The position numbers and the translations under genes were made by a program. The notes beneath the pieces are model-generated. The model was not told the origin of the DNA. It worked only from the letters and a program-made list of their open reading frames with translations, and ran no database searches. From contig CAMWLW010000022.1 in NCBI GenBank assembly GCA_947175245.1, forward strand, positions 1-33,804: a stretch of DNA of 33,804 nt. The letters run 5' to 3'. Below are positions 3,672 to 33,737 of the stretch, piece after piece (position 1 is the first letter of the stretch; the number at the start of each line of letters is the position of its first letter). This DNA comes from an uncultured Bacteroidales bacterium. Lineage in GTDB: Bacteria > Bacteroidota > Bacteroidia > Bacteroidales > Muribaculaceae.

Positions 3672-3702
3672 GCGATTTTTTTTGAACAATCACTGCCGAT
3701 GG

Positions 3703-3779
3703 GGTGTTTTATTATCAGAAAGCAACAAAGAGAGAGAATTTTTTCATTGCTTAGTTATAATGTGATAATGATTGGTTTA
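3703..3779 (-). repeat. 77-bp dispersed element, copy A
   Basis: These 77 bases match 21462-21538 in inverted orientation, without gaps and with only about five mismatches by eye. Read on the minus strand, the order is TAAACCAATCATTATCAC, an AT-rich stretch, a 10-codon micro-ORF and a stop. Two bases before it on that strand is a 15-bp perfect hairpin (3782-3816). Copy B has the same hairpin-then-element arrangement, but with a different stem sequence. Copy A lies upstream of the polyferredoxin operon and between it and the divergent dcw operon. What the element does is unknown; see findings. Confidence 0.85.
3715..3747 (-). CDS. Candidate micro-ORF MKKFSLFVAF (copy A)
   Basis: ATG at 3747 opens 10 codons (MKKFSLFVAF) ending in TGA. 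The sequence resembles the positively charged and hydrophobic start of a signal peptide, then stops. Copy B encodes the same peptide with only the last residue changed (Leu) and its stop in the same place. It could be a leader peptide for the polyferredoxin-thyA-folA transcript, 70 bases downstream, or simply the duplicated start of a secreted-protein gene. Translation is not shown by the sequence alone. Confidence 0.25.
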   Translation of the reverse strand: MKKFSLFVAF

Positions 3780-3781
3780 AG

Positions 3782-3816
3782 CCATGAGAGCCCGTCGCGA
3801 TGACGGGCTCTCATGG
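3782..3816. other. Perfect 15-bp hairpin adjoining copy A
   Basis: CCATGAGAGCCCGTC (3782-3796) and its exact complement (3802-3816) enclose a 5-base loop. Neither strand has a T-run right after it, so it is not a standard terminator. Its counterpart beside copy B (21425-21460) has a different stem but a similar GTCG...GAC core. Confidence 0.8.
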
Positions 3817-3859
3817 TATATGGTTGTTTGCATTTGTAAACGGGGCTATCGGGGCTACA

Positions 3860-20698: not shown

Positions 20699-20728
20699 AT
20701 TTTATATAACTTATTGACACACAGTAGT

Positions 20729-20755
20729 GACGTCGATTTATCGCGTCCGCCGCGG
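20729..20755 (-). repeat. GGACGCGAT unit, inverted copy
   Basis: On the minus strand this reads CCGCGGCGGACGCGATAAAT and continues CGACGTC. It matches the two plus-strand copies at 20901 and 21141 over GCGG(C/T)GGACGCGAT(A/G)AATCG. Confidence 0.7.
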
Positions 20756-20900
20756 CAAGGATAACATCGTCGCTCCGCGACTCAGTGGGGTGGGGCATGG
20801 CCTGTCCCTACACTCGGTCGCTGCGCTCCCGTCGTGCAGGGTTAACCATGACCGCGTGCCTCCGGCACTTAGCGCAATGCTCGATAATAATACCATGCTA

Positions 20901-20936
20901 GCGGCGGACGCGATGAATCGCGTGCCCTACAGTGGG
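20901..20936 (+). repeat. GGACGCGAT unit, copy 1
   Basis: GCGGCGGACGCGATGAATCG continues with CGTGCCCTACAGTGGG. It contains the palindrome CGCGATGAATCGCG (with a two-base centre) and agrees with 21141-21178, including the CCCTAC-AxTGGG tail. Confidence 0.7.
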
Positions 20937-21005
20937 TTAAGGGACGGCGGTGGTGTCAGAGGTGGTTGCCGTGGGTAAGTGTCGGAGACACGAGGTAATG
21001 ATTAA

Positions 21006-21085
21006 CCTCGGGTGGAGCGACCCGCAGGGGAGCGGAACCCGGGGAGAGTCACCCCACACGGTTGTGAGTCTCGGAGAGACGATGT
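21006..21085 (+). repeat. Two-hairpin element, copy 1
   Basis: About 80 bases. First helix: CCTCGGGT with ACCCGGGG (allowing G-T pairs), closing the conserved GGAGCGACCCGCAGG...GCGGA segment. Then a CACCCC(A) link and second helix GTCTC/GAGAC with a GGA loop, ending GATGT. It aligns with 21301-21382 over its whole length. Confidence 0.75.
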
Positions 21086-21140
21086 CGTGATACACGGTAA
21101 TGGTACGATTCTGACGTACCTGCTTGTAGATTAGCAGGTT

Positions 21141-21178
21141 GGCGGTGGACGCGATAAATCGGCGTCCCTACCATTGGG
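21141..21178 (+). repeat. GGACGCGAT unit, copy 2
   Basis: GGCGGTGGACGCGATAAATC is followed by GGCGTCCCTACCATTGGG. The internal palindrome is less perfect than in copy 1 because of an extra G. Confidence 0.7.
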
Positions 21179-21382: not shown

Positions 21383-21424
21383 TATATAATCGGCAGTCAT
21401 AATCATTAAGGAACGTATAGACAC

Positions 21425-21460
21425 CAAGCGAGGCGCTGTCGTCACGACGCGCCTCGCTTG
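21425..21460. other. Hairpin adjoining copy B
   Basis: CAAGCGAGGCGC (21425-21436) pairs with GCGCCTCGCTTG (21449-21460). The middle TGTCGTCACGAC adds a small GTCGT/ACGAC stem. One base separates it from the 77-bp element, the same arrangement as at copy A but with a different stem sequence. Confidence 0.8.
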
Positions 21461-21461
21461 A

Positions 21462-21538
21462 TAAACCAATCATTATCACATTATATCTTAGCAATGAAAA
21501 AATTCTCTCTCTTTGTTGCTTTGTGATATTATAACACC
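21462..21538 (+). repeat. 77-bp dispersed element, copy B
   Basis: This is the inverted partner of 3703-3779, gap-free with about five differences. Read on the plus strand: hairpin (21425-21460), TAAACCAATCATTATCAC, an AT-rich TATATCTTA that resembles a -7 box, a 10-codon micro-ORF, and at its end the first arm of a strong intrinsic terminator. This copy therefore looks like a complete tiny transcription unit. Confidence 0.85.
21494..21526 (+). CDS. Candidate micro-ORF MKKFSLFVAL (copy B)
   Basis: ATG at 21494, ten codons, TGA at 21524-21526. Differs from copy A only in the last residue (Leu for Phe). A terminator hairpin begins 9 bases after the stop. It resembles the start of a signal peptide without the rest. 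Nothing downstream on this strand could be regulated by it, so if used it is a stand-alone micro-gene or small RNA. Confidence 0.3.
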   Translation: MKKFSLFVAL

Positions 21539-21576
21539 TCGCGCGACCGGTTGGTTCACGCGAGGTGGATTTTTTT
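21535..21576 (+). terminator. Intrinsic terminator after copy B
   Basis: CACCTCGCG (21535-21543) pairs with CGCGAGGTG (21559-21567) around a 15-base loop. GATTTTTTT follows on the plus strand. Read on the minus strand the same hairpin lies 29 bases past the stop of the GH105-DUF2264 gene and could also mark its transcript end, though without a T-run on that side. Confidence 0.8.
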
Positions 21577-32330: not shown

Positions 32331-33737
32331 TTACCTGGTGATGCCGGTGGCGTTGATGAATTTGTATTCGCCGCCATAGGCCGAGGGGCCCATGTCGCCG
32401 ACGGTGACGCGGCAGTCGCGGAATGTGAGGTCGGACGCGCCGTCGACATAGAAGCCATAGACGGGGGCGTTGACAAAGCCCTCGCCGTCACAGGGGCGCT
32501 TGTCGTAGACTCCGCCGGGCCACGCGGTGGTCTTGGCGAGGCGCAGGTCGACGCGGTCAAAGGTGATGTCGTGTATCTTGCCGGGCTCGCCGCCGATGAA
32601 GCAGCCGTTCTCGCTGTCACACGTGATGTTGATGAATTTGATGCGGCTCACGTCGCCACAGCTGCCTGTCAGCGCGCCTTTGGGAAATCGCCAGCCGGCA
32701 TCCTTGTGGTTATCGGGGGCGCGGCGGTAGGACGTGACGTAGATAGGTTCGGCCTTGCCCCACCACACGTCGCTGTGGTAGAGGCACTCGACGCTCATGT
32801 TGGCGAAGGTGACGTCGGTGACGGTGCCCTCGTCGCGGTTCTGGATGCCGATGCCGCGGTTGCTGTTGCGTATGATGCAGTTGTCAAACAGCACGTGGTC
32901 GATGCTGTCCATGTTCTCGCTGCCTATCTTGACGGCACACGAGCGCGAGGTCATGATGCAGTTGGTGACGACGATGTCGCGGCACGGGCCATACTGCTCA
33001 TACTCGCGGCGGTTCTTGAGGCAGATGCAGTCGTCGCCGCTCTCGATGAAGCAGCCGGTGATGCGCACCTTGCGCGAGTGGTCGAGGTCGATGCCGTCGC
33101 CGTTGCGTATCTTGAGGTTGTTGAGCAGCGAGATGTCGCTGATGGCGGCGTCATAGCAGCCCACGAGGTGGATGGTCCAGTAGGCGCTGCCGGTGACGGT
33201 GATGCTGTTGATGTTGATTTTCTTGCAGTCGATGAGCGTGAGCACGTGGGGACGGGGGTCGAAAGTGGTGACGGGCTTGAGCTCGTAGGAGTCGTCGAGC
33301 TCGGCGCCCATGAAGGCCACGCCGTTGCCGTCGAGTGTGCCGGTGCCTGTGATAGAGACGTTCTGGAGGCCGGTGCCGCTTATCCACATCATGCCCTCAC
33401 CGCGGTTCTCGCCGAACGCGCTCTCGGTGTAGATGGCCTCGTCGGGGTTGGCAAGGAGTCGCGAGCCGGGGGCAAGGCGCAGTTCGACGTTTGAGCGAAG
33501 GTGAAGCGGGCCGGTCATGAAAGTCTTGCCGGCGGGAACGAGCACGGTGCCGCCGCCCGCGTCGGCACACGCGTCGATGGCCTGCTGTATGGCCGTGGCG
33601 TTATCGGTACCGTCGACCGCACGTGCGCCGTAGTCGGTGATATCGTAATAAAGACCTGAATTGCCGCTGCCGCCGCACGAGGTGAGTAACAGCACGAGTG
33701 ACAGGCAGAATGTGAGAATGGTTGATTGGATTTTCAT
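32331..33737 (-). CDS. GH28-like parallel beta-helix lipoprotein
   Basis: The 468-residue protein has a lipobox LLLTSC (Cys21) and then a right-handed beta-helix fold, opening with YDITDYGARAVDGTDNATAI (31-50) and GGGTVLVPAGKTFMTGPLHL (61-80). The polygalacturonase-type motifs are NGDGIDLD (212-219) and SGDDCICLK (233-241), giving the catalytic aspartates; SRSCAVKIGSE (264-274) stands where GH28 usually has G-H-G, and GIGIQNR (295-301) where it has RIK. The divergence fits the broader GH28-like group acting on modified galacturonans or rhamnogalacturonan. It is the first gene of the operon and has a good promoter. Confidence 0.87.
   Translation of the reverse strand: MKIQSTILTFCLSLVLLLTSCGGSGNSGLYYDITDYGARAVDGTDNATAIQQAIDACADAGGGTVLVPAGKTFMTGPLHLRSNVELRLAPGSRLLANPDEAIYTESAFGENRGEGMMWISGTGLQNVSITGTGTLDGNGVAFMGAELDDSYELKPVTTFDPRPHVLTLIDCKKININSITVTGSAYWTIHLVGCYDAAISDISLLNNLKIRNGDGIDLDHSRKVRITGCFIESGDDCICLKNRREYEQYGPCRDIVVTNCIMTSRSCAVKIGSENMDSIDHVLFDNCIIRNSNRGIGIQNRDEGTVTDVTFANMSVECLYHSDVWWGKAEPIYVTSYRRAPDNHKDAGWRFPKGALTGSCGDVSRIKFINITCDSENGCFIGGEPGKIHDITFDRVDLRLAKTTAWPGGVYDKRPCDGEGFVNAPVYGFYVDGASDLTFRDCRVTVGDMGPSAYGGEYKFINATGITR

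What the first reader, a model, noticed from the sequence alone, without database searches (positions are those of the whole stretch)
21425..21576. Copy B looks like a complete micro-gene: hairpin, micro-ORF, terminator
On the plus strand a 36-nt hairpin is followed by AT-rich sequence with a -7-like TATCTTAG, an ATG, ten codons (MKKFSLFVAL), a stop, and 9 bases later a strong intrinsic terminator with T7. The same micro-ORF is kept in copy A with one conservative change and the stop in the same place. The peptide looks like a truncated signal sequence. It could be a secreted or membrane-active micropeptide, a leader peptide, or a small RNA that happens to carry an ORF.
Basis: partly seen in the sequence, partly recalled or inferred. 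Interest (0 to 1): 0.6.

Follow-up and report, generated by a model that had tools for sequence, protein, structure and literature searches.

The report
Multicopy small-RNA gene on opposite strand
The supposed micro-gene is one of about seven copies, in this gut bacterium, of a previously undescribed small regulatory RNA gene that reads in the opposite direction; the ten-codon 'peptide' is an accident of its antisense strand, and the RNA probably switches off messages for cell-envelope proteins.

Summary
Among 155 analysed homologues, 21 lack an ATG, all three frames occur, and two of the seven own-genome copies are broken (frameshift; ATG lost). On the minus strand the repeat makes sense as a small-RNA gene. 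It has an A-tract, a GAAC box, an unconserved 16/17-nt spacer, a TGTTwTA box (ECF/'PM2'-like promoter) and a variable leader. Then come an invariant 20-nt core (AATGTGATAATGATTGGTTTA), a strongly covarying terminator hairpin capped by GNGA (GNRA-type) in nearly all of 71 aligned copies, and a U-rich tail. There are 41 clear copies in 8 congeneric genomes. The family is widespread in Muribaculaceae, was not found elsewhere in Bacteroidales, and is absent from Rfam. About 45 copies lie divergent to recA; one lies in a tailed phage. The core's complement is enriched in sense translation-initiation regions (>=16/21 matches: 4 versus 0.46 expected, 0/400 shuffles), and the hits favour exported proteins, including SusC-type receptors. 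Best reading: a paralogous, stress-promoter-driven sRNA family repressing envelope-protein mRNAs by antisense pairing, analogous to Bacteroides FopS/GibS. Expression and targets are untested.

The parts
21414..21525 (-). Copy B: predicted small-RNA transcript, about 110 nt (start site uncertain by a few nt)
   Evidence: Inferred from promoter, core and terminator; folds at -40.4 kcal/mol, z -4.8 against dinucleotide shuffles; covariance-model hit 21414-21484 minus, E 1.5e-11
21570..21576 (-).
   Evidence: Positional T/A peak 19-24 nt from the GGTTC box across copies
21553..21557 (-). -35/-30 box GAACC
   Evidence: AAC invariant, G 1.2-1.3 bits across 155 copies
21536..21552 (-). 17-nt promoter spacer, unconserved in sequence but fixed in length (16 or 17 nt)
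   Evidence: 155 of 167 extracted copies have 16 or 17 nt; most positions below 0.4 bit
21528..21536 (-). -10 box TGTTATAAT (GTT invariant)
   Evidence: Logo; resembles the TGTT of the non-canonical -30/-10 promoter of B. thetaiotaomicron (PMC12596196, PMC7366714)
21490..21520 (-). Leader hairpin of the RNA (GCAAC..GUUGC type), variable and absent in short copies; the antisense strand carries the micro-ORF
   Evidence: fold; short copies such as L036/L053 lack it
21462..21482 (-). Conserved core AATGTGATAATGATTGGTTTA, predicted single-stranded, candidate antisense seed
   Evidence: Exact in all seven own-genome copies; family-wide
21425..21460 (-). Intrinsic terminator hairpin with GNGA apex (here GTGA)
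   Evidence: 8 of 8 consensus pairs show two-sided compensatory changes in 71 sequences
21414..21424 (-). U-rich tail of the terminator (weak in this genus: GTGTCTATACG)
   Evidence: T fraction 0.61-0.67 at positions 4-5 after the stem versus about 0.3 further out, over 67 copies
21494..21526 (+).
   Evidence: Frame and ATG not conserved
21536..21576 (+).
3684..3708 (+). Copy A: promoter, GAAC (3684-3687) - 17 nt - TGTT (3705-3708)
   Evidence: Sequence
3716..3829 (+). Copy A: predicted small RNA; core 3759-3779; terminator hairpin about 3781-3817 with GCGA loop and a different stem sequence
   Evidence: z -6.5; orthologous copy beside the same gene in G003 (L030)

Best explanation
Window positions 21576-21414 (minus strand) and about 3684-3829 (plus strand) are two paralogues of a multicopy small-RNA gene family of Muribaculaceae. 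Each gene has its own alternative-sigma-type promoter (A-tract, GAAC, 16/17 nt, TGTTwTA) and makes an RNA of roughly 70-115 nt. The RNA has a variable 5' leader, a fixed single-stranded 20-nt core, and a GNGA (GNRA-type) capped intrinsic terminator. Shown from sequence: gene anatomy, strand, copy number, covariation, family restriction. Inferred: a stress-activated sigma factor transcribes the copies, and the shared core base-pairs with translation-initiation regions of envelope-protein mRNAs (including SusC-type receptors) and blocks translation, the copies acting additively. The micro-ORF is antisense to the leader and is not translated.
For: Copies and range. Strand: the apex is GNGA only on the minus strand (columns G40 and G42 invariant, A43 nearly so, N variable), and a strict test finds GNRA-capped hairpins in 97/152 copies on the minus strand versus 17/152 on the plus. 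The U-rich tail follows the hairpin on the minus strand. All 8 consensus pairs covary. The spacer is rigid in length and free in sequence between invariant GAAC and GTT, and the -10 resembles the TGTT of the B. thetaiotaomicron non-canonical promoter tied to ECF sigma factors. In short copies almost nothing lies between promoter and core. Targets: sense-TIR enrichment against dinucleotide shuffles, none in antisense TIR or mid-CDS; 9-mers of AAACCAATCAT 5-7 times sense versus 1-2 antisense; hits biased to exported proteins, 11/20 versus 172/648, p 0.0075; four SusC-type starts with 18/21 complementarity.
Against: No RNA data. The U-tract is weak in this genus. Wobble-pair counts in the hairpin do not favour either strand (34 versus 24). 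The own-genome 16-mer scan gave 61 near-matches against 11 for the reversed control, but the TIR share (22/54) was no higher than in the control (5/11), so that test does not support TIR-specific targeting. The best own-genome candidate (a subtilase) is not conserved in the genus. The sigma factor is inferred from motif resemblance to text descriptions, not from a logo or binding data. The TIR sample comes from loci around the sRNA genes, not from whole genomes.
Confidence: 0.78

Rival explanations
1. A non-autonomous mobile repeat (MITE- or REP-like) whose hairpin is a transposase recognition structure; any RNA is incidental.
For: Dispersed copies with mostly unrelated neighbours; contig ends fall in copies; a strong hairpin at one end.
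Against: No terminal inverted repeats or target duplications seen. Stem sequence changes freely while pairing, the GNGA loop and the core are kept. A rigid 16/17-nt spacer between fixed boxes has no role in transposition. Long-term orthologous positions exist: recA in about 45 loci, copy A in two species.
Confidence: 0.12
2. The small RNA exists, but its core binds a protein (sequestration or mimicry) instead of pairing with mRNAs.
For: An invariant 20-nt core is longer than an antisense seed needs; all copies share one core; own-genome near-matches are not TIR-specific.
Against: Sense-TIR enrichment with exported-protein bias. Bacteroides FopS RNAs also share a conserved seed.
Confidence: 0.2
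3. Plus-strand micropeptide, leader peptide or plus-strand RNA with ORF.
For: MKKFSLFVA(L/F) is kept in copies A, B and C7; the C55 copy has MEKFSLFVAL; there is a terminator-like dyad with T7 in copy B.
Against: Frame and ATG not conserved; the terminator stem is present in about 6% of copies; the central segment is deleted in short copies.
Confidence: 0.03
4. A cis-acting leader element of the neighbouring gene (for example recA).
For: About 45 copies lie 70-400 nt from a recA start, recA reading away from the core.
Against: Most other copies have unrelated neighbours in all orientations. The terminator and promoter point away from recA.
Confidence: 0.06

Closest known systems
FopS family of paralogous sRNAs, Bacteroides thetaiotaomicron (PMC11697453)
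   Same: Multicopy (12-15 per genome) intergenic sRNAs with one shared single-stranded 5' seed and an intrinsic terminator; SusC-type mRNA target; a phage-borne copy; one 3'UTR-derived member
   Different: FopS uses canonical sigma-ABfr promoters and the RRM protein RbpB. This family has a GAAC/TGTT promoter, no RRM_1 protein in 51/51 good genomes of its family, no Rfam match, and its core was not found outside Muribaculaceae
GibS sRNA, B. thetaiotaomicron (PMC7366714)
   Same: Intergenic sRNA driven by the non-canonical -30/-10 promoter (PM2)
   Different: Single-copy; its seeds were not compared letter by letter here (sequence not available in the text held)
E. coli MicA/RybB, sigma-E dependent sRNAs (own knowledge)
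   Same: Envelope-stress ECF promoter, conserved seed close to the 5' end, repression of outer-membrane protein mRNAs
   Different: Two to three unrelated single-copy RNAs, Hfq-dependent; no homology

Membership tests
Bacterial intrinsic-terminated sRNA gene | Stable GC-rich hairpin followed by a U-tract on the transcribed strand | tested here: met
   the U-tract is weak in the window's own genus
Bacterial intrinsic-terminated sRNA gene | Own promoter just upstream of the RNA | tested here: met
   GAAC-N16/17-GTT in 155/167 extracted copies; resemblance to an ECF/PM2 promoter is a motif match only
Bacterial intrinsic-terminated sRNA gene | Detected transcript | not testable with these tools
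   No RNA data; none found in the paper library
FopS | Match to the deposited Rfam model | tested here: not met
   No gathering hit in the window and no relevant hit at E<=1 in six copies; whether release 15 contains FopS was not verified
FopS | Partner RNA-binding protein RbpB (RRM_1) | tested here: not met
   0/51 good-quality Muribaculaceae genomes; control genome Bacteroides ihuae positive
FopS | Canonical sigma-ABfr promoter | tested here: not met
   Conserved boxes are GAAC and TGTT, not TTTG/TAnnTTTG
FopS | Shared R1 seed sequence | tested here: inconclusive
   R1 letters not available; no genome outside the family has more than 3 core matches at <=3 mismatches, whereas a shared 21-nt core would give 12-15
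Micropeptide gene | Conserved start codon and reading frame | tested here: not met
IS200/IS605-derived or MITE repeat | Terminal inverted repeats or defined empty sites | tested here: inconclusive
   No terminal repeats seen in 155 copies; empty sites not analysed

The most novel reading that the evidence does not exclude
A family-wide, multicopy sRNA regulon in Muribaculaceae that works without an RRM or Hfq-type chaperone. One invariant 20-nt core with a GNRA-capped terminator represses many envelope-protein mRNAs at their start codons under an ECF sigma factor, and phages carry the same core to rewire host envelope expression.
Probability: 0.25. Interest if true: 0.75.

Novelty: new member of a known kind. 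Interest (0 to 1): 0.58.

Why it matters
Muribaculaceae are dominant in the rodent gut, and in the searches made here nothing was found on their regulatory RNA. A large, conserved, easily recognised sRNA family with a predicted promoter, ends and seed gives directly testable predictions, and cultured hosts exist (copies lie in the type strains Duncaniella muris DSM 103720 and Paramuribaculum intestinale DSM 100749). It would show that FopS-like paralogous sRNA control of SusC-type receptors exists, perhaps convergently, in a family that lacks FopS's RNA-binding partner. It also shows how a short ORF on the antisense of a structured RNA gene can mimic a micropeptide gene.

Tried and rejected
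Plus-strand micropeptide (frame not conserved). A longer conserved peptide running through the hypervariable segment (open in one clade by fixed phase, but frameshifted or stopped in others). Guide-RNA or bridge-RNA reading of the 17-nt variable segment (dropped once it was seen to be a promoter spacer). attC or IS91-like ends (only short letter resemblances). Known Rfam family (none). Plasmid and phage record collections (no match). Wobble-pair asymmetry as a strand test (uninformative). Own-genome near-match scan as proof of TIR targeting (excess over reversed control, but not TIR-specific). Subtilase in the own genome as a conserved target (not conserved). A tight promoter pattern (GAACYWTTY..GTTWTA) in the own genome found nothing because the spacer differs in this genus.

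Full report
OBSERVATION. The described features are in the sequence: hairpin 21425-21460, ATG 21494, ten codons, TGA 21524-21526, a dyad and T7 ending at 21576. Copy A carries MKKFSLFVAF. The 152-bp segment recurs in the own genome and in all eight genomes of the genus. A covariance model of core plus hairpin finds 41 strong copies in these eight genomes, seven in the own genome, then a gap in E-value from 2e-7 to 1e-3.

THE MICRO-ORF IS NOT CONSERVED. Two own-genome copies are already broken: the C40 copy has a 2-nt deletion, and the C110 copy has AAATAG in place of the ATG. In 155 copies from many genera, 21 have no ATG before the AAC box. The distance from ATG to GTT falls in all three phases, and the reading runs from 1 to more than 25 codons. 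Short copies lack the segment entirely.

THE MINUS STRAND EXPLAINS THE ANATOMY. Read 5'->3' on the minus strand, each copy has an A-rich tract, GAAC(C/T), 16 or 17 nt with almost no sequence conservation, (T)GTTwTA, a variable leader, the core AATGTGATAATGATTGGTTTA, a hairpin, and a U-rich tail. 155 of 167 extracted copies have the 16/17-nt spacing. A spacer of fixed length and free sequence between fixed boxes is the hallmark of a promoter. The -10 TGTT resembles the non-canonical -30/-10 promoter of B. thetaiotaomicron that has been tied to ECF sigma factors and that drives the GibS sRNA (PMC7366714, PMC12596196, PMC11697453). The hairpin covaries at all 8 consensus pairs. Its apex is GNGA with a variable N (columns G40 and G42 invariant, A43 nearly so), a GNRA-type tetraloop that exists only on this strand; a strict test gives 97/152 copies versus 17/152 on the plus strand. 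The tail is U-rich on this strand. The predicted RNAs of copies B and A fold far better than shuffles (z -4.8 and -6.5), the core being mostly unpaired. The wobble-pair test did not decide between strands, and the U-tract is weak in this genus, so the strand call rests on the tetraloop, the promoter geometry and the tail profile.

DISTRIBUTION. An exact core was found in over a hundred contigs labelled Muribaculaceae, Duncaniella, Paramuribaculum, Muribaculum or uncultured Bacteroidales. The invariance of the core in the alignment is partly by construction, since copies were extracted by an exact 19-nt match. 194 of 297 genomes of the family have a match with up to 3 mismatches, a count that includes some non-copies. 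In an order-wide sample exact matches occur only in this family; elsewhere matches stay near the control level, with one 1-mismatch hit. No Rfam family matches, nor plasmid or phage records. One IMG/VR contig with terminase, dUTPase and helicase genes has the core right after a stop codon, followed by a GCGA-capped hairpin and T6.

GENOMIC CONTEXT. Copies are intergenic in all orientations, and neighbours are mostly unrelated. The exception is a 45-member cluster beside recA, where the sRNA gene reads away from recA. Copy A has an ortholog beside the same gene in G003. This is a mix of long-held positions and lineage-specific dispersal; how copies spread was not determined.

TARGETS (INFERENCE). 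The complement of the core is enriched in sense translation-initiation regions of 668 Muribaculaceae genes relative to dinucleotide-preserving shuffles: at least 16/21 matches in 4 versus 0.46 expected (0 of 400 shuffles), and no excess in the antisense or in mid-CDS. The 9-mers around AAACCAATCAT occur 5-7 times sense versus 1-2 antisense. Hits favour exported proteins (11/20 versus 172/648, p 0.0075). Imperfect family-wide matches include four SusC-type starts with 18/21 complementarity immediately before the ATG (CarbopepD_reg_2 domain), a lipoprotein start shared by two species, a porin-like start, and many further starts. A weaker point: in the own genome, near-matches exceed the reversed control (61 versus 11) but are not more often in TIRs than control hits. 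Targeting is plausible, not shown.

COMPARISON. It works like FopS/GibS of Bacteroides and, more loosely, MicA/RybB. It is not filed as FopS. Its promoter differs, it has no Rfam match, and the RRM_1 partner family is absent from 51/51 good genomes of the family while present in a control Bacteroides genome. The FopS R1 seed could not be compared letter by letter.

VERDICT. Confidence is about 0.78 in a minus-strand sRNA gene family, and about 0.5 that antisense repression at start sites is its main mode of action.

Noticed in passing
L072-L209, e.g. L119 (Duncaniella muris DSM 103720): About 45 copies of the family lie divergent to recA across genera, often after a DUF1573-like gene; in D. 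muris two copies stand in tandem there.
   Followed up: partly
L212:5795-5860 (IMGVR_UViG_3300035520_000548): A tailed-phage contig carries the exact core directly after a stop codon, followed by a GCGA-capped terminator with T6: a possible 3'UTR-derived phage version.
   Followed up: partly
window 33711-33726: The near-complement of the core (13/16) lies in the first codons of the GH28-like lipoprotein gene (start 33737, minus strand): a candidate target in the window itself.
   Followed up: no
window 20714-21171: Inverted and direct repeats of the type TAGGGACGCGATTTATCGCGTCCGCC, also beside other sRNA copies (L002, L004, L030, L044): a second, unrelated dispersed repeat.
   Followed up: no
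L001, L036, L047, L086, L091, L099, L127, L189: In a few copies the promoter region contains a perfect 8-10 bp dyad flanking the GAAC box and abutting the -10, more often than chance; a local terminator or operator overlapping the promoter.
   Followed up: partly
L282-L287 (G150): A variant subfamily whose core is TAAGTGATAATGATTGGTTAA/TTTA, with at least six copies in one genome.
   Followed up: no
family-wide: RRM_1 (RbpB-type) proteins are absent from all 51 good-quality Muribaculaceae genomes tested, unlike Bacteroides.
   Followed up: partly
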